Source of the DNA: Acidobacteriota bacterium | GTDB taxonomy: Bacteria; Acidobacteriota; Terriglobia; UBA7540 | Assembly (NCBI GenBank): GCA_024638215.1 | Contig: JAHEKS010000004.1 | Location: 1 to 40,292, forward strand | DNA length: 40,292 nucleotides | Reading direction: 5' to 3' | Part shown: in pieces, positions 1,335 to 40,292 of the stretch | Layout: each line of letters opens with the position of its first letter | Position numbering within the stretch: position 1 is the stretch's first letter | Position numbers and translations under genes: made by a program | Notes under the pieces: generated by a model | The model's input: the letters and a program-made list of their open reading frames with translations, nothing else | The model's database searches: none | What the model was told of the DNA's origin: nothing

Positions 1335-4028
1335 ATGGATGAAATTCTCCGCCGCGAAGTCCGATTGCTCACCACGCGCCTGGGCTCGATCGCTCGCGAG
1401 CTCGCCGGCGAGGAAACCTTCCGCGCCATCGAAAACCTGCGCGGCTTTTCCAAACAACTCCGGCAAAGTCCCAGTCCCGAGCTGCTGAGTTCGAACGAAC
1501 AGGAGGTGCAGCGGCTCACCCTCCGGCGCGCGACCGAAGTGGCACACGCGTTCAGCCTTTTCTTTCACCTTGTCAACCTGTGCGAGGAACGCCAGCGGGT
1601 TCGCCGCCTGCGAGCCTATGAAGACCATGAGAAGGGCGCACCGATGTCGCTGCGGCATACCTTCAGCGAATTGGCGCGCCACAAAGTATCGGCGCGCGAA
1701 ATCCTCGAACTTCTCCGCACCATGCACGTCGAGCCGGTGCTGACGGCGCATCCCACGGAGGCCAAGCGCCGCAGCGTCTTCAACCACGTACTGCGCATCG
1801 CGCGGACGCTGGAAGCGCACCAGGGCGCTCCGCACCACGTAGCCGAGCGCGCTCTGGATCCCTGGATCGAGGCGCTCTGGCTGACCGACGAGGTCCGCGA
1901 ACGCCCCGTCACGCCGGAACTCGAAATCGAAAGCTCACTGGTTTTTCTCGAACGCACCATCTATGACCTGGCGGGCGTCTTCTGGGAGAGATTCTGCGAC
2001 GAACTCGCGCGGCTCGATGATGCCGCGGAGGGACCGCCACCGTTTCTGCGTTTCGGCTCCTGGGTCGGCACCGATCGCGACGGCAATCCCAACGTCACGC
2101 CCGCGATCAGCCTGCGCGCGGCGGAACATCTGCGGCGCAGCATCCTGAATTACTACCTCAAATGCCTGCGGCAAATGCTGGGCGTGATTTCGTTTCCCCC
2201 TGTGCGGGCGACGGTCGAAAAGCGTATCCGGCGCGACCTGGAGCGCTCGATGCGCCGGTTCCCCGCGACGCGCGAGTTTCAGAAGGTCGATCAGCCGCAC
2301 GAATATTACCGCCGCAAAATCCGCATCATGATGTGGCGGCTCGAGCAGACGGCCGAGGGACAATGCGGCGCTTACGCGGATGCGCGCGAGTTTGAAGGAG
2401 ACGCGCGAAGGCTGGAAATGCTCCTGGCCGGGCATCCCAGCCCGCGCGTGGCTCGCCTGGGCCCGCGTCGGCTACGCGTGGCCGCGCAGGTCTTCGGCTT
2501 TCACGCCGCCAGCCTCGATTTTCGCCAGCACGTTTCCCTCATTCGCGCGGCGTCAGAGGAGATTCTTCGCGCCCACCGCAAGCCTTCCGAGCCGGCGCAA
2601 GCGCGAATCGAATCCATTCGATCTCTGCTCGCGAGAGCGCCGCGAAAACTGAAACTCTCCGCCAGCGCCAAGCGGACGCTCGAGGAATTCAGCGCGCTGA
2701 AAGATATTCAGGCGCGCTTTGGCGAAGCCGCTTCGCACCGCTACATCCTGAGCATGACGCGCTCGGCAGCGGACGTTTGGGACGCGCTGCTGCTGGGCTG
2801 GCAGGCGGGCCTGGTGCGCGCGCGGCGAGGCAAGCTGCAATCGTCGCTCGACGTCATACCCCTTTTTGAAACGCTTGAAGACCTCGAGGCCGGCCCCGGC
2901 GTGCTCGACGAACTTCTGAGCGATCCCGTCTACCGCCGCCTTGTCGCCTCGCGCGAGGATTTCCAGGAAGTGATGCTCGGGTACTCGGACTCGGTGAAAG
3001 ACGGCGGCTACTTTGCGGCCAACTTTGCCTTGCTGCGCGCACAAAAGCGGCTGTGGGAAGTCGCCGCGCGGCACGGCGTGCGCTTGAGCCTTTTTCACGG
3101 CAAGGGCGGCACCATCGGGCGCGGCGGCGGGCAGTCGCACCGCAGCGTCCACGCGCAACCCTACGCGGCGCCGGGCGGACGCATCCGCATCACCGAACAG
3201 GGAGAAGTGATCTCGCTCAAATACGCCAACCTGGAAATCGCCGAGCGCAACCTGGAGCAACTGGTCAGCTCGGTGCTCGACACGCTGCTGCTCGACCCGC
3301 GGCGCAAGCCGCGCGAGCACCGCCTGCCCGAATGGGAAGCGTACGCGCAGGAGATGGCCGATGCGAGCAGCCGCTTCTATCGCGAGCTGGTTTACGAAAC
3401 GCCCGGCTTCATGGAATATTTCCGCCAAGCCACGCCGATTGATCTGATCGAAGGGCTGCGGCTCGGCTCGCGCCCCAGCCGGCGTTCGCGCGCGGGCGAC
3501 CTGAGCGGACTGCGCGCCATCCCGTGGGTTTTTGCCTGGACGCAATCGCGCCACTTCATTCCGGCGTGGTACGGGCTCGGTTACGCGCTGGAGAAATTCG
3601 CAGGCGATCATCCGCCCTCGGGCTGGCAAATCCTGAGAGAGATGTACCGCGACTGGCCGTTCTTCTCGCTGCTCGTTGACAACGCCGAGGTCTCGCTCGC
3701 CAAGACCGACCTTTACATCGCGCGCCGCTACGACGCCTTGTGCCGCGACGCCAATCTGCGCGAGGCGATTTCCAAGCGCATCGAAGAGGAATACGCGCGC
3801 AGCGTGCGCGCCGTGCTCGCCATCACGGAATCCTCGCGGCTGCTCGCGCGCCAGCCGGTGCTGGAAGAATCCATCCGCCTGCGCAATCCCTACGTGGACC
3901 CGCTCAACTTTCTGCAAATCCGCTTCCTCGGCGAGTGGCGCCGCGCACCCGCCGTGCGACCGGAATTGCTCCACCTGCTGCAACTCACCGTCGGCGGCAT
4001 CGCCTTCGGAATGAAAAGCACGGGCTGA
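1335..4028 (+). CDS. ppc: Phosphoenolpyruvate carboxylase
   Basis: Cytosolic enzyme that carboxylates PEP with bicarbonate to oxaloacetate, an anaplerotic reaction feeding the aspartate family (threonine, lysine) made by other genes here. At 897 residues it has the usual family length. Diagnostic blocks appear in order: VLTAHPTE with the catalytic His at about 139, GSWVGTDRDGNPNVT, YSDSVKDGGYFAAN, the mobile loop FHGKGGTIGRGGG with the second catalytic His at about 588, IPWVFAWTQSR, and a C-terminus GIAFGMKSTG that closely matches the normal NTG end. The ATG at 1335 gives a normal N-terminus. It follows thrC by 63 bases on the same strand, so the two may be cotranscribed. Identification is firm. 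Confidence 0.97.
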   Translation: MDEILRREVRLLTTRLGSIARELAGEETFRAIENLRGFSKQLRQSPSPELLSSNEQEVQRLTLRRATEVAHAFSLFFHLVNLCEERQRVRRLRAYEDHEKGAPMSLRHTFSELARHKVSAREILELLRTMHVEPVLTAHPTEAKRRSVFNHVLRIARTLEAHQGAPHHVAERALDPWIEALWLTDEVRERPVTPELEIESSLVFLERTIYDLAGVFWERFCDELARLDDAAEGPPPFLRFGSWVGTDRDGNPNVTPAISLRAAEHLRRSILNYYLKCLRQMLGVISFPPVRATVEKRIRRDLERSMRRFPATREFQKVDQPHEYYRRKIRIMMWRLEQTAEGQCGAYADAREFEGDARRLEMLLAGHPSPRVARLGPRRLRVAAQVFGFHAASLDFRQHVSLIRAASEEILRAHRKPSEPAQARIESIRSLLARAPRKLKLSASAKRTLEEFSALKDIQARFGEAASHRYILSMTRSAADVWDALLLGWQAGLVRARRGKLQSSLDVIPLFETLEDLEAGPGVLDELLSDPVYRRLVASREDFQEVMLGYSDSVKDGGYFAANFALLRAQKRLWEVAARHGVRLSLFHGKGGTIGRGGGQSHRSVHAQPYAAPGGRIRITEQGEVISLKYANLEIAERNLEQLVSSVLDTLLLDPRRKPREHRLPEWEAYAQEMADASSRFYRELVYETPGFMEYFRQATPIDLIEGLRLGSRPSRRSRAGDLSGLRAIPWVFAWTQSRHFIPAWYGLGYALEKFAGDHPPSGWQILREMYRDWPFFSLLVDNAEVSLAKTDLYIARRYDALCRDANLREAISKRIEEEYARSVRAVLAITESSRLLARQPVLEESIRLRNPYVDPLNFLQIRFLGEWRRAPAVRPELLHLLQLTVGGIAFGMKSTG

Positions 4029-30738: not shown

Positions 30739-30815
<77 letters not shown>

Positions 30816-30828
30816 TCTTTTCAACAAC

Positions 30829-31935
30829 TTAGCAGACCCGTTCTTGCCGTTGCTCCGTGACTGTGGGGACTTTTGTGGGGACCCTTTGTGCTTCGTGCTC
30901 TTTGAACGCCTGCTCGATATTAAACTCGCGGAGTTTTCTGAGGGCATCTTTTTTGTGCTCTGGCGTGGGATGAATGTACCGCAGCGTGGTTGAGATTTCC
31001 GAATGCCCCATCAACTCCTTGAGTGTCGGCAGGTCCACTCCGGCCATGGCTGAACGCGACCCGAACGTGTGCCGAAGATCGTAGATTCGGAATCGCGGAT
31101 TGATCTTGGCATCCTTCAAAGCCTCTTCGTGGGCTCTCTTCATACACGTGAGAGGTTTGTTCGGATCGTGACGGTGCGGGAAAACATACGGTCCCTTCGC
31201 TGCCCTTACTCTTCGCTTGAGAATCGCCTTCGCGGTGTCGGTAAGGGGAATACTCCTTCTGGCAAACCGCGTCTTGCCCGCGGGAACGAAAACGTAACCG
31301 TGGGTCAAGTAAACGTTCTCCTTGCGGATTGTAAAGACTTCTTCAGGCCGCAACCCCGTTTCCAAGATCATGCTGGCCACGTCCCGGAGTAGCTTGTTGG
31401 CTTTCGATAGATACCTGCGTTGCTCTTCTTGCGAAACAGCCCGCATCGGCCCAGGCCCCTCGGGAAGCATCTTGACCCCGTGAACAGGATTCTTGACGAT
31501 CATTCCCTTTCGCATCGCGTAGTTGAGCATGAACCTCAGCATGGCGATATCCCGATTCGTGGCCGCTGGAGAAACATCTTCGGACCGAATCTGCTTGAAC
31601 TTTTCCACATGACCGGTGGTGATTGCGTCAAGCGGTAGCTTTCCGAAGAACTTATTCAGCGTACGGGAACTGGTCTTGTAGCGCATGTGTGTCCTCGGGT
31701 GTGCCTCGTGCTGCTTTTCCGACCAGGGGAGATAATCGTTATTCACAAAGTCCTCGAACTTCGGAGAGGGACCGCGATGCACAATCCCCACCCGGCCTTC
31801 TGCCAATTCGGCTCTGCGGATGGATTCCGCGTCCGTAGCCGCGTTCTTGTTGGCGAGTCCGGTTGATTCCCGGTAACGAATCCCTCGAAACCAGAAGTCA
31901 TACCAGTAAACACCGCCTCGCTTGTAAACGCTCAT
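30829..31935 (-). CDS. Tyrosine recombinase (phage-type integrase)
   Basis: 368 residues. The N-terminal arm-binding region (SVYKRGGVYWYDFWFRGIRYRESTG) is followed by a core-binding SAM-like domain (about 65-155) and the catalytic domain. Catalytic residues: Arg in ETGLRPEEVF, Lys in AGKTRFARRS, the box YDLRHTFGSR (Tyr replaces the first His, a variation seen in other integrases), His in LMGHSEISTT and the nucleophile Tyr in LRYIHP. The gene ends 13 bases from tRNA-Arg, pointing to site-specific integration there. Its ATG overlaps the stop of the upstream helix-turn-helix gene as ATGA. Confidence 0.95.
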   Translation of the reverse strand: MSVYKRGGVYWYDFWFRGIRYRESTGLANKNAATDAESIRRAELAEGRVGIVHRGPSPKFEDFVNNDYLPWSEKQHEAHPRTHMRYKTSSRTLNKFFGKLPLDAITTGHVEKFKQIRSEDVSPAATNRDIAMLRFMLNYAMRKGMIVKNPVHGVKMLPEGPGPMRAVSQEEQRRYLSKANKLLRDVASMILETGLRPEEVFTIRKENVYLTHGYVFVPAGKTRFARRSIPLTDTAKAILKRRVRAAKGPYVFPHRHDPNKPLTCMKRAHEEALKDAKINPRFRIYDLRHTFGSRSAMAGVDLPTLKELMGHSEISTTLRYIHPTPEHKKDALRKLREFNIEQAFKEHEAQRVPTKVPTVTEQRQERVC

Positions 31936-32150
31936 TTCCGTCTCCTCTCATGCGGATCGGAGACAGAAACCCTGCAACGCTCCAAGTAGGCTTGTACTTC
32001 AGCGGGATCATACCGCACCGCCCGGCCAATCTTCAAATACGGAATCCCGCGCCTCTGTGAGCGCCACTGCGCAAGCGTGTCCAAGGAAAGGTCCGTTATT
32101 TCGGCAACGTCCTCCGGCGTGAGTAAGTCGGGAATGACTACGGCTGCCAT
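31932..32150 (-). CDS. Excisionase-like helix-turn-helix protein
   Basis: 72 residues of the MerR/AlpA-like HTH_17 family: LLTPEDVAEITDLSLDTLAQ then WRSQRRGIPYLKIGRAVRYD and PAEVQAYLERC. Such proteins act as recombination directionality factors or regulators of the neighbouring integrase. The frame is open to 32264, but the extra N-terminus is unrelated to the family, and the ATG at 32150, one base after the stop of a small membrane-protein gene, fits a coupled operon. The stop overlaps the integrase start by four bases. Confidence 0.85.
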   Translation of the reverse strand: MAAVVIPDLLTPEDVAEITDLSLDTLAQWRSQRRGIPYLKIGRAVRYDPAEVQAYLERCRVSVSDPHERRRK

Positions 32151-32151
32151 C

Positions 32152-32298
32152 TCAGGCTCCCGATGTCCGTGAGTTCGGCGTCTGACTTGGCAAGGACGGT
32201 GCCACAGTCGCGCCTTTATGAAGTAGGGTGTCGAGTATGAAGACAGCGACAATGACCCCGACAATTATCAGAGCCGCTCCAACAATGGTGATTCTCAT
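32152..32298 (-). CDS. Small single-helix membrane protein, 48 residues
   Basis: Reads MRITIVGAALIIVGVIVAVF then ILDTLLHKGATVAPSLPSQT and a short polar tail. One clear transmembrane helix (about 4-24), then a Pro/Ser/Thr-rich tail. Its ATG overlaps the stop of the upstream zinc-ribbon gene (ATGA) and its stop is one base from the excisionase-like ATG, so it is locked into a four-gene operon with the integrase. I do not recognise the family. The tight packing argues that it is real. Confidence 0.65.
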   Translation of the reverse strand: MRITIVGAALIIVGVIVAVFILDTLLHKGATVAPSLPSQTPNSRTSGA

Positions 32299-33692: not shown

Positions 33693-35117
33693 GTGAACTA
33701 TAACTTGCTCGAAGAAGAATGGATTCCGGTCCTGTTTTCGAACGGCATGGTCAAGCGTGTAAATGTCATTAAGGCGTTCACTGAAGCGAATCGAATTCGT
33801 GGAATCGCAGCCACCAATCCCATGGACCGCTTGGCCATTTTGCGCTTTCTCCTCGCACTGCTTTATTGGTGCAAGCGAAGCTCCCCGGGCGGGCTACCAG
33901 AGAGGTCCTTTCCCTTAGATTGGCTCAACGAACTCCAACGCCATAGAGATTGCTTCAATCTCCTAGGCGATGGAAGGCGGTTTTATCAGTCAAGGCAGAG
34001 AGACAGTAAGAAGACTCTCCCCGCAAATTATCTTGTGCAAGAGGTCCCCACAGGCACAAATCTCTGGCACTTTAGGCACTCAACCGACGAGTCCGACGGC
34101 TTGTGTCTTTCCTGTTGCGCCATGGGATTATTGCGTCTCCCCTTGTTTGCCACGTCGGGGGGACGGGGTAAGCCGCCTGGCGTCAACGCGAAGCCGCCAG
34201 TTTATGTTGTGCCTTTAGGCACATGTCTTGCGGATACCTTGCGCCTGTCGTGGCGGGAAGTGTCTGACCTAGGAACACCATCATGGGAAAAACCAGATTT
34301 GGTCCTACCAAGGACAGGTAAGGTCCCACTACTTGTAGGGTTGACGTGGCTTCCGCGTCGGGTCTGGCTCGACGACCCCGAGGAATCCGAAGCGAGATGC
34401 ATCTCATGCGGGCGTGAAGAGCGTTTGATCCGGCGAACCGTCTTCGCAGGCGTCGGGAGCATGAAGAGCGATGCAGATGGAGGGCCACGGGATTGGAAAG
34501 ACCCGCACGTCGTTTCTGAAGGCAACGATATTGTGAGACCCAGCGATGCCCTCGACCGCTCAGACGCGGCCGCTGGTCAGTGGGCAAGGGTCATGGCGGG
34601 AATTCTTAACGAACCAAGAGGGAGCGTCGTGCCCGGGTTGTGGGTAGTCGGCTTCGCCACAGTGCAAAACGACAAGTATCTGGAGGCGATGGAATCTATG
34701 ATTCCCTTCTCCCTCGCGCCGGAAGATAGGAAGTGTCAAGAGAGTGTTAACAACATTAGAATGTGGCAAAAAGAAGGACAGAGATTGCGGTCGAAGCTTG
34801 CCAACATCATTCGGCCAAGGGCACCTTCGCGGAAATATGTTCAAGTCGAGGCCCGCGCGATGGTTGACGGCATTCGCCCTCATGTTGAAAGCCACATCTC
34901 CGCAAGGGTGGGCAAGCTGATCACTGGCGGCGAGGGATGGGAGCAAGCGGCTCGCGAATATAGCCCCATGATGACCGCTGTCGCCAAAACGCTTTCACCT
35001 GGTTACACGACCACCGCGTTCCACAAACGTCAAAAGATAGCCAGTCTACGACCGGACATGTGGCCAAAGACCCTAACGAATGAAGGGTCCAGTCAAAAGA
35101 CGGGAGGGGGGAATTGA
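33693..35117 (+). CDS. cas8e: Type I-E Cascade large subunit Cas8e (Cse1/CasA)
   Basis: 474 residues (E. coli Cse1 is 502). It recognises the PAM and helps open target DNA. Family features: start MNYNLLEEEWIPVLFSNG, the zinc-associated LCLSCCAMGLLRLPLFATSG block near 150, then RGKPPGVN, CISCGREERLI, and a C-terminal four-helix region. In classical systems this subunit recruits Cas3, but no cas3 precedes it here. The start is GTG at 33693 with GAAAGGAGGATTGA ideally placed upstream. The first gene of a tightly overlapping cas operon; its TGA overlaps the cse2 start (TTGA). Confidence 0.93.
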   Translation: MNYNLLEEEWIPVLFSNGMVKRVNVIKAFTEANRIRGIAATNPMDRLAILRFLLALLYWCKRSSPGGLPERSFPLDWLNELQRHRDCFNLLGDGRRFYQSRQRDSKKTLPANYLVQEVPTGTNLWHFRHSTDESDGLCLSCCAMGLLRLPLFATSGGRGKPPGVNAKPPVYVVPLGTCLADTLRLSWREVSDLGTPSWEKPDLVLPRTGKVPLLVGLTWLPRRVWLDDPEESEARCISCGREERLIRRTVFAGVGSMKSDADGGPRDWKDPHVVSEGNDIVRPSDALDRSDAAAGQWARVMAGILNEPRGSVVPGLWVVGFATVQNDKYLEAMESMIPFSLAPEDRKCQESVNNIRMWQKEGQRLRSKLANIIRPRAPSRKYVQVEARAMVDGIRPHVESHISARVGKLITGGEGWEQAAREYSPMMTAVAKTLSPGYTTTAFHKRQKIASLRPDMWPKTLTNEGSSQKTGGGN

Positions 35118-35626
35118 CTCCAACTGAGCAATACATAAATGCGCTTGGGAATTTGAAACGAGGCGAACTTGGTCTGTTGCGCTCACACGCAGGCCAGAGC
35201 TTGGACGAATCGCTAGACGGGTTCGACCTGTTCACTGGCACTTGGTGGCCGTTGCGAGCAAAAAACCAGAGGGCACCCCGCCGCGAGGTGGCATGGCTCT
35301 TAGCCAAACTGTATGCCTTCCGGCCAATCCTGCACTCTCCTGGAGAAACACTTGCTTATCAGCTAGGCCGCTTGCGGCCCGCGAAACATCTTGACCAGGG
35401 GCGTTCGCGCGTGAGGTTTGATAGGAGGTTCGACGAAATTCTGACTTTGCCGCTTCGCAAAATCGAGCCTGCTCTGCAATGGGCGCTTGACCAACTCGCT
35501 TCAAACAACCTGAACCTCGATTGGGTAAGACTCACGGATAATCTTTCCTTTTGGGAACGGGAATCCACCCGCCTCAATTGGGCGAAGGAGTTCTTGGAAT
35601 CTTCACGAGGAGGAGAACCATGGTAA
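35114..35626 (+). CDS. cse2: Cascade small subunit Cse2 (Cas11e/CasB)
   Basis: 170-residue mostly helical protein; two copies form the belly of Cascade and hold the displaced strand. Recognisable: NLKRGELGLLRSHAGQSLDE, WLLAKLYAF, and the C-terminal RRFDEILTLPLRKIEPALQW plus LDWVRLTDNLSFW (family: Arg-rich helix, 'DW..L..DL..W'). It starts with TTG overlapping the cas8e stop and preceded by GGGAGGGGGGAA. Its end overlaps the cas7e start by seven bases. Confidence 0.9.
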   Translation: MTPTEQYINALGNLKRGELGLLRSHAGQSLDESLDGFDLFTGTWWPLRAKNQRAPRREVAWLLAKLYAFRPILHSPGETLAYQLGRLRPAKHLDQGRSRVRFDRRFDEILTLPLRKIEPALQWALDQLASNNLNLDWVRLTDNLSFWERESTRLNWAKEFLESSRGGEPW

Positions 35627-36813
35627 TTCAGATTCACGCCATTCAGAATCACAGTCCGGCCAATTTGAACCGGGACGACCTGGGGGCGCCCAAGACCTGT
35701 TTCTTCGGCGGCGTCCTCCGCTCCCGCATTTCCAGCCAGTGCCTCAAACGCAGCATTCGCATGAGCGACGAATTCAGACGATTGCTCGGCGGAGTGCGCA
35801 CAAGACAATTGGCGAAATTGATCGCCGAAAAGGTCACAGGCAAGGACGTGAAGAAGCGCGCCGAGAATATTCTCAAAGCCTGTGGGCTTGAGCCTAAGAA
35901 AACAAGAAAACAGGAGGGAGAAGACGAGCCAGAAAATGCTGAAAGAAGCAAGATGCTCGTTTACACCACGCAAGAGGCGATTTCACAAATGGCCAAGCTT
36001 CTGCAGAACGCTGACGGAAAGAAGGATGAGTCACTGGCAGCGGAATTCGAGAAACTCATAAGTGAATCAGTCGCGGTACCGGACATGGCCCTCTGTGGCC
36101 GGATGCTTGAAACAGGCGTCCTCAAAGATACCACTGTTGAGGCGGCGCTTCAGGTGGCCCATGCCATTTCCACCCACGAGGCCCGGCCCGAGGTTGATTA
36201 CTACGTTGCTAAGGATGATATCCCTGGTGAGGATGCTGGCGCGGGTTACGTTGACGAAGCAATGTTTGCATCAGCCTGCTTCTACAAGTACTTCTCGATT
36301 GACTGGGAAACTCTGTGCAAAAACCTGAAAGGCTTTGGAGATAGTCACGAAAAACTGGCCGCGCACACCGTGGGAGCATTCATTCGAGGGGCAGCGCTGG
36401 TCAATCCTACAGGAAAGCAAAACAGCTTCGCCGCGCACAATCCCCCCGACGGGATATTGGTCGAGGTCGGAACCGCGCCCCTCAACTACGCCAACGCCTT
36501 TGTCAAACCGGCGGCTCCGCAAGGCGAGCGAGACATCATTTCGCAGAGCATCACGCAACTGGGCCAGTACATTCACGACCTGGACACCGGATACGGCAGG
36601 CCCACGAAACGGTTCTGGTTCTCCCCCAATCTCCGCTACCCCCTGACGGCCACGATCAAGGAAAGCGAAGACGGAAAGCAGAAACAGCGTGAAGTCGAGC
36701 TTGCCGATAACAACCTCAAGTCGCTTGACGAGTTGATACCGGCTGTCATCCGGGCAATCGGCCACGACTGGGAGGAGGCTCAGAAGGTCATTCTGAACTC
36801 GGAGGTGGCCTGA
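35620..36813 (+). CDS. cas7e: Cascade backbone subunit Cas7e (Cse4/CasC)
   Basis: 397-residue RRM-fold protein; six copies coat the crRNA spacer. The start MVIQIHAIQNHSPANLNRDD and then GAPKTCFFGGVLRSRISSQCLKRSIR are the Cas7e hallmark. Later blocks are PDMALCGRMLETG, VDYYVAKDDI..EDAGAGYVDEAMFASACFYKYFSID and FAAHNPPDGILVEVG. The frame is open to 35551, but ACGAGGAGGAGAACC directly before ATG 35620 and the family alignment fix the start there. The stop shares one base with the cas5e start (TGATG). Confidence 0.95.
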   Translation: MVIQIHAIQNHSPANLNRDDLGAPKTCFFGGVLRSRISSQCLKRSIRMSDEFRRLLGGVRTRQLAKLIAEKVTGKDVKKRAENILKACGLEPKKTRKQEGEDEPENAERSKMLVYTTQEAISQMAKLLQNADGKKDESLAAEFEKLISESVAVPDMALCGRMLETGVLKDTTVEAALQVAHAISTHEARPEVDYYVAKDDIPGEDAGAGYVDEAMFASACFYKYFSIDWETLCKNLKGFGDSHEKLAAHTVGAFIRGAALVNPTGKQNSFAAHNPPDGILVEVGTAPLNYANAFVKPAAPQGERDIISQSITQLGQYIHDLDTGYGRPTKRFWFSPNLRYPLTATIKESEDGKQKQREVELADNNLKSLDELIPAVIRAIGHDWEEAQKVILNSEVA

Positions 36814-37913
36814 TGAGCGCCAACACCTTGTTTGTTCGGCTGGAAGGTCCTCTTCAGGCGTGGGGCGATCAGCAATCCAAGTTTCTCATCCGGCGAACGG
36901 CGGAGGCCCCGACCAAGTCTGGACTCATCGGGATGCTCTGCGCGGCCTTGGGCATCAACCGCCATGAAGCCGCGAAAGAGTGGCTTCCGAAGCTTGCCGC
37001 CTTGCCAATGGGCGTGCGCATCGATGTACCCGGCGTGCGCTGGTGGGATTACCACACAGTCGGCGCAAGGATGGAGATGCGCACTGCTGAGGGAAAGACC
37101 AAGCCCGGCGCGATGCTTACCCGGCGCGAATATCTCTGCGATGCCTCTTTCCTTGTTGCCCTGCAGGGCAAGCCGGACTTGATCGCCCAAATTGAAACCG
37201 CACTCAATGCGCCTAGGTGGACCCTCTATCTAGGCAGAAAGTGTTGTCCTCCTTCCCGTCCGTTGCTGGAGTATCCGGCAGGAGAATATTCCGATTTGCT
37301 TTCTGCACTCAAATCCATCCCTTGGCGCAAACGCCTTGAAGGGGATCAACAGCCTGCGACCGTAGAATGCCTCATCGATTGGAAACCAACCGAAGACCAA
37401 TCCGAAGCACCTGATAACGTGCTTATCTGGTATGACGTACCCCGGACCTTAGAACCACCCTCGCACGAACCCCGATTCGTGACTCGCACGGAATTGCGGG
37501 TAGGCACCGAGGACGGTGTAATAGTCGCAGTTCAGCCAGCGCAGAGCCACACGCCAGCACTTTCCCGGCCGAGAGCGGATTACACCAACACCGAATACAG
37601 GAAAAAGCGCCTTGAGCGGCTCGCCCTGGACCATCAACTGTGCGTCTTCTGCAAGGCTCCCGCTAGCTCCGTGCAGCACGTCACGTATCGACGAGGCGGA
37701 GGCTATGAAACACTGGACGACCTGCGCGCACTCTGCCGTTACTGCCACGATGCCGTTACCATGATCGAATACGGGCTTGGCATGGGCTTGGACCGGATCA
37801 ATCCTGAAGAGTTTCGCTGGCGCAACCTGATTATTGAGAAACGGAATGAGATTATCAAATTCCGCTCCATGCAAACGCGACGCCGCAAGCTTGCTGCCGG
37901 GGAGGTGGAGTAG
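36813..37913 (+). CDS. cas5e: Cas5e fused to a C-terminal HNH nuclease domain
   Basis: 366 residues against about 225-250 for ordinary Cas5e. Residues 1-240 are Cas5e, which caps the crRNA 5' handle: LFVRLEGPLQAWG, APTKSGLIGMLCAALGI, MLTRREYLCDASFLVALQGK, GRKCCPPSRPL. After a linker (about 241-260), residues 261-315 form an HNH endonuclease with zinc knuckles: Cys277/Cys280 (CVFC), the catalytic-type His289 in VQHVTYR, ETLDDLRALC, and Cys308, Cys311, His312 (CRYCHD). About 50 basic residues follow. The fusion is in the middle of the operon and in frame. With no cas3 here, the HNH domain is the likely target-DNA nuclease, as reported for rare Cas5-HNH type I-E systems. Confidence 0.95.
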   Translation: MSANTLFVRLEGPLQAWGDQQSKFLIRRTAEAPTKSGLIGMLCAALGINRHEAAKEWLPKLAALPMGVRIDVPGVRWWDYHTVGARMEMRTAEGKTKPGAMLTRREYLCDASFLVALQGKPDLIAQIETALNAPRWTLYLGRKCCPPSRPLLEYPAGEYSDLLSALKSIPWRKRLEGDQQPATVECLIDWKPTEDQSEAPDNVLIWYDVPRTLEPPSHEPRFVTRTELRVGTEDGVIVAVQPAQSHTPALSRPRADYTNTEYRKKRLERLALDHQLCVFCKAPASSVQHVTYRRGGGYETLDDLRALCRYCHDAVTMIEYGLGMGLDRINPEEFRWRNLIIEKRNEIIKFRSMQTRRRKLAAGEVE

Positions 37914-37915
37914 CC

Positions 37916-38689
37916 ATGTACCTCTCCTGTCTTTTGATTGATGTGGGTGGCAACCCCGACCATCCCCGCCCTGGCCGACTTTGGCTTCGCAACCTCTATC
38001 ATGTCCACCAGCGCCTTTGCATGGCCTTTCCTTCTGAGTTGCGGAAATCCGACGACCAAAACTTCCTGAAACCATTTAACCCAGAAGATTTTGGGAATGG
38101 ACATGTCCATGTCAAGCGCGCCGACGACAAGGGCTTCCTGTTTCGCATTGACCCGAAGCCGGGCGGCCGCGTGGTGATTGTCGTACAATCCTCCACTGAA
38201 CCCGACTGGGATTACGCCTTTCACAATGCTGGGTATCTATTAGCGGCTCCACCCCAGGTGAAGCTATTCGACCCTTCCTTCGAAGCTAAACAGCGTCTCC
38301 GCTTCCGCCTGGTTGCAAACCCGACCCGTCGCTTATCGAATCGTTCGCTTGGAGCCGACGGACAACCTATTCAAAAAGGGATCGGCAAGCGTGTCCCTGT
38401 GCCGACGGACCGCCTTCTCGAATGGCTCACCGGCCGAGCTGAAAAAGCCGGATTCTCAATTGAGAGCAAATCTGTCGATGTTTCGCCGGGCTATATCTGT
38501 ATCAATAAGGCGCGGAGCGGCGATGGGCTTCGTTTACGCTCAGTTCGTTACGATGGCGTTCTCATTGTCACTAACCCCGCGCGCTTCCGGGAGGGAATGT
38601 TACAAGGCATTGGTACCGGCAAGGCCTTTGGCTTCGGCCTGCTTTCCGTAGCCCCCTGCCACACGCTGCTCGCGGCGGAGGCACCGTGA
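37916..38689 (+). CDS. cas6e: crRNA-processing endoribonuclease Cas6e (CasE)
   Basis: 257 residues. Cuts the repeat hairpin of the CRISPR transcript and stays bound to the crRNA 3' end. The N-terminus MYLSCLLIDVGG...LRNLYHVHQRLCMAFP matches Cas6e; His31 aligns with the catalytic His of the E. coli enzyme. The C-terminal glycine-rich loop GIGTGKAFGFGLLSVAPC is diagnostic. About 40 residues longer than E. coli CasE. The ATG is two bases after the cas5e stop; the TGA overlaps the GTG start of cas1. Confidence 0.93.
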   Translation: MYLSCLLIDVGGNPDHPRPGRLWLRNLYHVHQRLCMAFPSELRKSDDQNFLKPFNPEDFGNGHVHVKRADDKGFLFRIDPKPGGRVVIVVQSSTEPDWDYAFHNAGYLLAAPPQVKLFDPSFEAKQRLRFRLVANPTRRLSNRSLGADGQPIQKGIGKRVPVPTDRLLEWLTGRAEKAGFSIESKSVDVSPGYICINKARSGDGLRLRSVRYDGVLIVTNPARFREGMLQGIGTGKAFGFGLLSVAPCHTLLAAEAP

Positions 38690-39660
38690 GAGTTCAAGAC
38701 CTCCACGTTTTGCCCAAGTTCAGTGACGGGTGGAGTTACCTCTACGTGGAGCATTGTCGCGTTGACCAGGAGGACCGGGCCATTGCGATTCACGACCAAG
38801 CCGGGAAGACGCCCGTGCCTTGCGCGAATCTGGCTTTGCTTATGTTAGGGCCGGGTGTCTCCATCACTCACGCAGCCATCTCGGTACTCGCTGACCATGG
38901 TTGCCTTGTAGCCTGGTGCGGTGAAGAAGGAGTGCGCTTCTACGCTACGGGAATGGGAGAGACGCGCAGCGCGGCCAATTTCCTGCACCAGGCGCGAATG
39001 TGGGCGCACGAGGGCTTCCGCATGGAAGTAGTGCGACGCCTCTACCAGTTGCGCTTCTCCGAGAGGTTCGACCCGGCCTTCAGCCTTCAACAGATTCGCG
39101 GCATGGAAGGCGTAAGAGTGCGTGGGGCATACGCTAAGGCAGCAAAAGAAGCCGGTATCACGTGGGAGGGCCGAAGCTATAAACGCGATGAGTGGAGCAA
39201 GGCGGACCCTGCCAATCGGGCCTTGTCCGCTGCCAATTCCTGCCTTTATGGAATCTGCCATGCGGCCATCGTGTCGGCGGGCTTCTCCCCTGCTCTCGGC
39301 TTTATCCACACCGGCAAGATGCTGTCCTTTGTGTATGACATCGCCGATCTTTACAAGACCGAAATTACCGTTCCCGTAGCGTTTCGAGCCGTCGCTGAAG
39401 AGAAAAAGCCGCTCGAACGGCAGGTCCGCATCAACTGCCGCGACCAGTTTGTATCCACTCGGCTCTTAGAAAGGATCATCCCCGACATTCAATCGGCGTT
39501 GATGCTGACAGTTGCGACTACTCCGGACACTGACTTCGACCTCGATGCCGCCGCCCCCGGCTTCCTTTGGGATAACGTGGAAGGTAAAGTCGAGGGCGGT
39601 CGCATGCAAGTGGCGGAAGGCGACGAAACGGAGCCCGACGATGGTGGTCCTGATTCTTGA
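38686..39660 (+). CDS. cas1: CRISPR adaptation integrase Cas1 (type I-E)
   Basis: 324 residues. With Cas2 it inserts new spacers. The metal-binding catalytic residues fall at the same numbers as in E. coli Cas1: Glu141 (RGMEGVRVR), His208 (LGFIHTGK) and Asp221 (FVYDIADLYK, with Asp218). The N-terminal beta domain (DGWSYLYVEHCRVDQEDRAI) is present. The acidic C-terminus (EGDETEPDDGGPDS) is a variable tail. Starts with GTG overlapping the cas6e stop. The adaptation machinery looks intact. Confidence 0.96.
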   Translation: MRVQDLHVLPKFSDGWSYLYVEHCRVDQEDRAIAIHDQAGKTPVPCANLALLMLGPGVSITHAAISVLADHGCLVAWCGEEGVRFYATGMGETRSAANFLHQARMWAHEGFRMEVVRRLYQLRFSERFDPAFSLQQIRGMEGVRVRGAYAKAAKEAGITWEGRSYKRDEWSKADPANRALSAANSCLYGICHAAIVSAGFSPALGFIHTGKMLSFVYDIADLYKTEITVPVAFRAVAEEKKPLERQVRINCRDQFVSTRLLERIIPDIQSALMLTVATTPDTDFDLDAAAPGFLWDNVEGKVEGGRMQVAEGDETEPDDGGPDS

Positions 39661-39922
39661 GCGCGTGCCGCCGGGATTGCGCGGCGAGCTCACACGATGG
39701 TTTCTGGAACCACAGGCAGGGGTGTTTGTGGGACGCGTTTCCGCCCTCGTTCGTGACCGGCTCTGGGAGAAAGCTTGCAGCAAGGCCAGCGGCGGCGGAT
39801 GCCTGATTATCTATTCCAGTGATAATGAACAGGGCTTTCGAGTCCGAACTTGGGGCCGAACCGCACGCCAGATCGATGACTTCGAGGGCCTTTTTCTCGT
39901 CCGTATGCCGCAGAATCAGTAA
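39641..39922 (+). CDS. cas2: CRISPR adaptation subunit Cas2 (type I-E)
   Basis: 93 residues of the Cas2e/CasB-type ferredoxin fold: MVVLILERVPPGLRGELTRW, FLEPQAGVFVGRVSALVRDR, LWEKACSKASGGGCLIIYSS, DNEQGFRVRTWG, with the typical 'QGF..RTWG' segment. It forms the central dimer of the Cas1-Cas2 spacer integrase. The ATG at 39641 overlaps the end of cas1 by 20 bases, the normal arrangement in type I-E; the frame is open further upstream inside cas1, but family alignment starts here. The stop is only 10 bases before the first CRISPR repeat. Confidence 0.94.
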   Translation: MVVLILERVPPGLRGELTRWFLEPQAGVFVGRVSALVRDRLWEKACSKASGGGCLIIYSSDNEQGFRVRTWGRTARQIDDFEGLFLVRMPQNQ

Positions 39923-39932
39923 CTTGGTTAGT

Positions 39933-40292
39933 ATCGTCCCCACGCGCGTGGGGGTGAACCGAGGGAGCGGCTGCCATGGGAAGCCGATCTTTTATCGTCC
40001 CCACGCGCGTGGGGGTGAACCGCGAGCGTCATTTGCACGCGCGCCATGGGTTTGATCGTCCCCACGCGCGTGGGGGTGAACCGCATCCGCCCCGGCCGAA
40101 TCCTTCCAGGCCCGAATCGTCCCCACGCGCGTGGGGGTGAACCGCACTCCGGCCGGCATGGGATGGGTTCGCATGAATCGTCCCCACGCGCGTGGGGGTG
40201 AACCGTCCGTGCGCGTGGGCCGAATAAGGAAGTACAAATCGTCCCCACGCGCGTGGGGGTGAACCGATGAGCGAATACTTCTCGCGGTTGGG
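39933..40292 (+). CRISPR. Type I-E CRISPR array, six repeats seen, continues beyond the window
   Basis: Six identical 29-base repeats start at 39933, 39994, 40055, 40116, 40177 and 40238 (61-base period). They begin ATCGTCCCC, contain the perfect palindrome CCCCACGCGCGTGGGG, and end GTGAACCG, the expected 8-base crRNA 5' handle for plus-strand transcription. Five complete 32-base spacers are visible, plus 26 bases of a sixth. All spacers differ, and I saw no match to the rest of the window. Only 10 bases separate cas2 from the first repeat, so there is no conventional AT-rich leader. The identical repeats and intact cas1-cas2 suggest a recently active array. Confidence 0.98.

What the first reader, a model, noticed from the sequence alone, without database searches (positions are those of the whole stretch)
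33693..40292. Type I-E CRISPR-Cas in which Cas5e carries an HNH nuclease and cas3 is missing
The Cascade and adaptation genes are complete and overlapping, but no helicase/HD nuclease gene lies before cas8e, the usual place, or between the cas genes. Cas5e is extended by an HNH domain with CVFC, HVTYR, LRALC and CRYCHD. The HNH fold is established as a metal-dependent DNA nuclease in Cas9 and homing enzymes, and Cas5-HNH type I-E variants have been reported from large-scale mining as rare cas3-independent DNA cutters. Cas5 sits at the crRNA 5' handle near the PAM, so cleavage would be placed differently from Cas3 shredding, giving a compact defined cutter (inference).
Basis: partly seen in the sequence, partly recalled or inferred. 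Interest (0 to 1): 0.93.

Follow-up and report, generated by a model that had tools for sequence, protein, structure and literature searches.

The report
Cas3-less CRISPR with built-in DNA cutter
This is a bacterial CRISPR immune system in which a DNA-cutting HNH domain fused to the Cas5 subunit appears to stand in for the usual Cas3 shredder; it is a clear new member of a rare variant that is already published (I-E2), so it is real but not a new kind.

Summary
Window 33693-39922 encodes cas8e-cas11-cas7-cas5-cas6e-cas1-cas2, followed at 39933 by a type I-E array cut off by the contig end. Cas5 (366 aa) carries a C-terminal HNH domain. No cas3 was found in the window, and none reaches the curated cut-offs in the 94%-complete own genome. 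The kind is known: variant I-E2 (Cas5-HNH), with published RNA-guided dsDNA cleavage and solved structures. All five Cascade subunits match the solved Cas5-HNH Cascade (8yb6 set) best, Cas5-HNH at E=1.3e-126. I found 49 relatives (48 genomes, 1 viral contig; 42 labelled rows fall in 12 phylum groups). Four cysteines and H289/H312 are invariant in 50 of 50. Three relatives keep a truncated Cas3 HD piece directly before cas8. Side findings: the array starts 10 bp after cas2 (short gaps are commoner in this family than in controls); the window copy lies beside an integrase at a tRNA-Arg; one relative lies 0.5 kb from a phage portal gene.

The parts
33693..35117 (+). cas8e (Cse1/CasA), 474 aa, GTG start behind an AGGAGG
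   Evidence: PF09481 127 bits; TIGR02547 70.2 bits, cut-off 70.05; best PDB match 8yb6_J E=6.7e-70; start site seen
35114..35626 (+). cas11 (Cse2/CasB), 170 aa
   Evidence: PF09485, TIGR02548, 8yb6_K E=5.3e-37
35623..36813 (+). cas7e (Cse4/CasC), 396 aa
   Evidence: PF09344 309 bits, TIGR01869, 8yb6_D E=2.2e-121
36813..37913 (+). cas5e-HNH fusion, 366 aa
   Evidence: PF09704 145 bits and PF01844 22.1 bits; TIGR01868 161 bits; 8yb6_A E=1.3e-126 over both domains; fold match to 8yha/8yb6/8zlu
37533..37910 (+). HNH domain, residues 241-366; C277, C280, H289, C308, C311, H312
   Evidence: these six residues invariant in 50 of 50 Cas5-HNH rows
37916..38689 (+). cas6e (Cse3/CasE), 257 aa
   Evidence: PF08798, TIGR01907, 8yb6_B E=4.4e-54
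38686..39660 (+). cas1e, 324 aa
   Evidence: PF01867; TIGR03638 388 bits
39641..39922 (+). cas2e, 93 aa
   Evidence: PF09707, TIGR01873
39933..40292 (+). CRISPR array: 6 identical 29-nt repeats, 5 whole 32-nt spacers and one cut by the contig end; begins 10 bp after the cas2 stop
30739..30812 (+). tRNA-Arg (anticodon CCT), likely integration site of an island; whether the CRISPR locus belongs to that island is not shown
   Evidence: Rfam RF00005, ARAGORN
30829..31935 (-). tyrosine integrase at the tRNA 3' end
   Evidence: PF00589 85.8 bits
31932..32264 (-). excisionase-like DNA-binding protein
   Evidence: phrog_66 'excisionase and transcriptional regulator' E=6.9e-10

Best explanation
A functional-looking type I-E2 (Cas5-HNH) CRISPR-Cas system. 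The array transcript is cut by Cas6e into crRNAs with 32-nt guides; Cas8, Cas11, Cas7, Cas5-HNH and Cas6 form an HNH-Cascade; PAM recognition and a full R-loop move Cas6 and the HNH domain so that HNH cuts both strands on the PAM-distal side, giving a defined break (in the studied system a 3' overhang) and collateral ssDNA cleavage, without a helicase that shreds. Cas1-Cas2 add spacers. Shown here: gene content, domain identity, invariant HNH residues, no detectable cas3. Inferred by homology to the measured Cloacimonetes system: assembly, PAM use, cut positions and collateral activity.
For: All five Cascade subunits have the solved Cas5-HNH Cascade as best PDB match, ahead of canonical I-E; for example Cas8 E=6.7e-70 against 5.6e-11 for the best other Cas8. 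AlphaFold model (mean pLDDT 76.2, pTM 0.61) has seven Cas5-HNH chains as its first seven PDB matches, at 51-54% identity. Four cysteines and two histidines invariant in 50 of 50; HNH part more conserved than the Cas5 part (median identity to the window 69% for residues 255-350, 58% for 1-240, 49 rows). No cas3 over cut-off genome-wide. In the relatives' stretches a Cas3 profile found no complete cas3 in any of the 48 Cas5-HNH genome loci or in L067; 35 of 44 loci with a cas8 match (window and L067 included) have that match at base 2600 or later, so upstream room for a cas3. Cleavage by such a complex, abolished when the HNH catalytic residues are inactivated (shown as loss of editing in human cells), is published.
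Against: No activity was measured for this locus. The array is cut off and no convincing protospacer was found for the 5 whole spacers, so neither recent use nor a PAM is shown. The right flank is missing. The genome is 94.1% complete in 453 contigs, so a cas3 in the missing part cannot be excluded; 15 of the 48 Cas5-HNH relatives' genomes have a cas3 over cut-off somewhere.
Confidence: 0.92

Rival explanations
1. An ordinary type I-E system that still uses a Cas3 encoded in trans or right of the contig end; the HNH is an accessory.
For: The contig ends inside the array. 15 of 48 Cas5-HNH genomes have a cas3 over cut-off elsewhere; in the four of these whose cas3 contig I read, it belongs to a separate plain I-E system (G001, G025, G017) or to a type I-C-like one (G031). 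For relatives whose contig starts at or inside cas8 or later (9 of 44 with a cas8 match, and those without one) a cas3 just outside the contig is not excluded.
Against: No cas3 over cut-off in this genome by three models. Three relatives keep only truncated cas3 pieces before cas8. Published HNH-Cascade cuts without Cas3.
Confidence: 0.05
2. A decayed or binding-only system: Cascade binds and silences, HNH inactive.
For: No protospacer evidence of use.
Against: All seven genes open and overlapping or nearly so, six identical repeats, the six HNH residues invariant across 50 divergent proteins.
Confidence: 0.03

Closest known systems
Type I-E2 / Cas5-HNH system of Candidatus Cloacimonetes bacterium (PMC10910872: passages and section 8 read; structures 8yb6, 8yha, 8zlu, 8zm3, 8zol, 8zp7, 8zp9, 9jxs: search listings)
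   Same: Same five Cascade genes, C-terminal HNH on Cas5, cas3 lacking, 32-nt spacers; all five subunits match the solved complex best.
   Different: Cas5-HNH only 51-54% identical; different genome; this copy lies beside an integrase at a tRNA. The published locus's array gap and neighbours were not seen.
Canonical type I-E (Thermus thermophilus HB8 pTT27 fetched; E. coli by PDB match)
   Same: Cascade gene order and repeat type; Cas5 part about 38% identical to Thermus.
   Different: The Thermus locus carries cas3 before cas8 and a Cas5 without HNH.
Type I-F4 / Cas8-HNH of Selenomonas (PMC11459484 seen in listing only; PMC11822464 whole text; PMC10910872 section 8)
   Same: HNH stands in for Cas3; PAM-distal cuts.
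   Different: HNH sits in Cas8f, type I-F backbone, 5' overhang.

Membership tests
Type I-E2 (Cas5-HNH) | HNH nuclease fused to Cas5 at its C terminus | tested here: met
Type I-E2 (Cas5-HNH) | Conserved HNH residues present | tested here: met
   C277, C280, H289, C308, C311, H312 in 50 of 50 rows; their roles (zinc, catalysis) are inferred from general knowledge of HNH folds
Type I-E2 (Cas5-HNH) | Full type I-E Cascade gene set | tested here: met
Type I-E2 (Cas5-HNH) | Typically lacks cas3 at the locus | tested here: met
   no Cas3 profile hit in the whole window; right of 40292 not readable
Type I-E2 (Cas5-HNH) | No cas3 in the genome (stricter than the published definition) | tested here: met
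   no match over cut-off with three models in a 94.1%-complete genome
Type I-E2 (Cas5-HNH) | I-E repeat (29 nt), 32-nt spacers | tested here: met
Type I-E2 (Cas5-HNH) | PAM-dependent, HNH-dependent dsDNA cleavage | not testable with these tools
   needs biochemistry; published for the Cloacimonetes system
Canonical type I-E | cas3 helicase-nuclease | tested here: not met

The most novel reading that the evidence does not exclude
The I-E2 system of this window is cargo of an integrative element at tRNA-Arg(CCT): the integrase abuts the tRNA 3' end, G+C falls to 53-57% from there to the window's end (58-65% elsewhere in the window), and a second tRNA 3' copy exists on another contig. With a viral contig in which an I-E2 operon starts about 0.5 kb from a lambda-type portal gene, and a patchy spread over 12 phylum groups, this would make I-E2 a mobile system that moves between phyla on phages or islands and may serve conflicts between mobile elements.
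Probability: 0.3. Interest if true: 0.5.

Novelty: new member of a known kind. Interest (0 to 1): 0.3.

Why it matters
It adds a well-preserved I-E2 ortholog, and 48 genome relatives, to a variant whose activity, in the papers I could see, was measured for one organism. That gives a conservation map of the HNH, further candidates for compact Cas3-free DNA cutters, and stages of cas3 decay (truncated HD pieces in three relatives) that make the HNH-for-Cas3 replacement traceable. It does not change the published mechanism.

Tried and rejected
Protospacers: window array against INPHARED phages gave 3 records with one weak 30-bp hit at E=0.3; the arrays of L054 and L042 gave 3 records with 60-80% identity hits of many pieces (repeat-like, my reading) and no match. 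Five spacer patterns, N at every sixth base over the first 23 bases, against IMG/VR: 4 of 5 no hit, 1 of 5 hit two contigs with the same sequence; the full spacer matches only 21 of 32 there and all three free positions mismatch, so I call it chance. The cut sixth spacer matches only itself in the own genome; the five whole spacers were not searched in the own genome.

Shared upstream partner gene: up to three ORFs of at least 100 aa nearest to cas8 in each of 34 loci gave 98 ORFs from 33 loci (L059 gave none). At E up to 1e-4 no Pfam family is in more than 2 of 98 (integrase 2 of 98), so no accessory helicase recurs there.

17 shared 40-mers between L048 and a cas3 contig of the same genome are not a cas3 remnant: they lie in a small ORF of about 90 aa found before cas8 in L048 and before the cas3 of a separate, type I-C-like system in L135 (the I-C label is my reading of gene order and proteins, no family search).

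Helicase-like piece before cas8 in L029 (E=0.03; no Pfam or NCBIfam match) is too weak to count.

A gap between the cas11 and cas7 matches in L045 and L046 is a longer cas7 (591 and 568 aa), not an extra gene; similar gaps in L050 and L057 were not looked at.

Plasmids: 214 PLSDB records match, none covers 80% of the query; the 20 listed match only residues 1-236.
Full report
Observation. The window's last 6.6 kb hold cas8e, cas11, cas7e, cas5e-HNH, cas6e, cas1e and cas2e on the + strand, overlapping or within a few bases, then a 29-nt repeat array of 61-bp period. The window is the whole of contig C93, which ends in the array. The repeat occurs nowhere else in the genome (6 places, all in C93, up to 3 mismatches allowed).

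HNH. Pfam HNH matches residues 280-315 just above its gathering score (22.1 against 21.4). The decisive evidence is homology of the whole chain to the solved Cas5-HNH CasD (E=1.3e-126; the next, ordinary Cas5e chains are at 2.6e-25 and weaker and stop at or before residue 243). Cas8, Cas11, Cas7 and Cas6 also match the same solved complex best. The AlphaFold model's first seven PDB matches are Cas5-HNH Cascade chains. The model is only fair (mean pLDDT 76.2), and the relative position of the two domains is not reliable (rmsd 14-17 over the full chains).

Relatives. A scan of the 84,980-species collection gave 49 loci; 48 (L018-L065) carry the HNH, one (L066) is a plain I-E locus with complete cas3. 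IMG/VR gave one (L067). In 50 aligned proteins (48, L067, window; L066 left out) C277, C280, H289, C308, C311 and H312 never vary. The search patterns include stretches around two of these motifs, so the sample is biased towards conserved motifs to some degree. A maximum-likelihood tree of the 50 puts the window next to a Nitrospinota sequence (97/84); the 42 rows with phylum labels fall in 12 groups and need 20 label changes (least possible 11), fewer than in any of 200 shuffles (mean 25.8): some vertical signal plus many apparent transfers; bins may hold wrong contigs. In the window's own phylum (name not given to me) 20 of 396 sampled genomes match the query, and only the window's own matches in the HNH; the other 19 match within residues 3-243. 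So the system is sporadic there.

cas3. Own genome: and the identification of the three best helicase hits as Lhr, HRQ1/MrfA-type and RecG. Relatives: cas3_core over cut-off in 16 of 50 genomes or records, one of them L066's, hence 15 of 48 Cas5-HNH genomes; a further one (G018) lies just below the cut-off. 24 cas3 or HD loci (about 1.5 kb on each side; not every place found had a locus) were compared with the Cas5-HNH locus of the same genome: none shares sequence with it except L066's own and the L082/L048 stretch explained under Tried and rejected. A profile made from 14 of these Cas3 proteins, run over six frames of the 50 loci, the window and seven other loci, found complete cas3 only in L066 and L082 (both among the 14), but truncated HD pieces directly before cas8 in L034 (143-aa frame), L030 (116 aa) and L116 (100 aa), the last on the contig that carries the front of a cas8 in the genome of L021, whose own contig starts inside cas8. 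Pfam Cas3_HD confirms all three over its cut-off of 23.1: 42.6, 52.5 and 55.0 bits. L116 and L034 still read HDIGKA; L030 has lost it. These are cas3 remnants of the kind that Altae-Tran et al. mention in a sentence. They lie on different branches of a tree with several weak forks, which favours several losses after the HNH was gained, or one early truncation that decayed. The window has no trace of one: the Cas3 profile finds nothing in it.

Mechanism. Published for Candidatus Cloacimonetes: PAM-dependent dsDNA cleavage, cuts 3-4 bp (target strand) and 8 bp (non-target strand) beyond the protospacer on the PAM-distal end, 3' overhang, collateral ssDNA cleavage, loss of activity on inactivation of the HNH residues (PMC10910872 section 8). 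HNH is held between Cas6 and Cas11 and moves with Cas6 on R-loop formation (PMC11822464, whole text). The primary structure paper (Zhang 2024, Mol Cell) is not held, so its residue-level claims are not used. Given the match over all subunits I infer the same mechanism here. The 2025 classification names the variant I-E2 (PMC12669027, passages).

Adaptation side. The window's Cas1 and Cas2 are 73-77% and 78-79% identical to those of L041-L043, whose Cas5-HNH is only 56-57% and Cas7 47-48% identical; L018, among the closest in Cas5-HNH (74%), has Cas1 at 60% and Cas2 at 68%; L019 is close in both (74%, 76%, 80%) (best segments). Adaptation and effector modules have thus been reshuffled in part. 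The array starts 10 bp after the cas2 stop. In 38 family loci with a readable array and cas2 (window included) the gap is at most 31 bp in 26, against 3 of 22 control I-E loci, Fisher p=4.6e-5. Of 26 control loci tried, 4 gave no value (3 no cas2 hit, 1 no array); 18 of the 22 come from the window's phylum and were not checked for cas3. L018 is counted at 78 bp although one search shows a further, mismatched repeat copy about 61 bp nearer to cas2, so 26 is if anything low. Rows are related and the gap may follow the cas1-cas2 type (control L132 has 16 bp), so this is a correlation only. 18 of the 38 have AGT just before the repeat.

Context. The integrase at the tRNA-Arg 3' end, an excisionase-like gene and a G+C drop to 53-57% (the rest of the window, in 2-kb steps, 58-65%) suggest an island boundary left of the CRISPR genes. 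A second copy of the tRNA 3' end (1 mismatch in 36) lies on contig C150 without a whole tRNA, beside another integrase-like ORF (the ORF label is my reading). Whether the island spans the CRISPR locus is not shown, and integrases are rare among the upstream neighbours of the relatives (2 of 98 ORFs). L067 (8.3-kb IMG/VR contig) has a lambda-type portal gene (E=5e-64, 1906-3387 on -) starting 0.5 kb from a divergent I-E2 cas8; a phage-borne system, a neighbouring prophage or a chimera are all possible.

Novelty. Paper searches on this point: (open-licence PMC library only). The kind is described; this locus is a new member.

Noticed in passing
window 30739-32264; G000:C150:30737-30772 (L129): tRNA-Arg(CCT) with adjacent integrase and excisionase-like gene; G+C is lower from there to the window's end; a second tRNA 3' copy without a whole tRNA lies on C150 beside another integrase-like ORF. 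Looks like an integration hot spot that may carry the CRISPR locus.
   Followed up: partly
L067 1906-3387 and 3922-8109: IMG/VR contig with a lambda-type portal gene divergent from a Cas5-HNH I-E2 operon about 0.5 kb away: possible phage-borne I-E2.
   Followed up: partly
window 39922-39933 and 37 relatives: Array begins a few bases after the cas2 stop in many I-E2 loci (26 of 38 at most 31 bp, controls 3 of 22), so the leader may overlap the end of cas2.
   Followed up: partly
L116 1055-1354 (-), L034 6458-6886, L030 6445-6792: Truncated Cas3 HD pieces directly before cas8 in three Cas5-HNH systems.
   Followed up: yes
L048 117-389 and L135 8419-8697 (- strand): Similar small ORF (about 90 aa) precedes the I-E2 cas8 and, in the same genome, the cas3 of a type I-C-like system.
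   Followed up: partly
L138 (Oceanithermus profundus pOCEPR01): Conjugative plasmid with cas8-cas11-cas7-cas5-cas6 annotated but no cas3, cas1, cas2 or HNH in the stretch read (the record starts there).
   Followed up: no
L045 5599-7374, L046 8283-9989: Cas7 of these relatives is 170-200 aa longer than the window's (insert of unknown role).
   Followed up: no
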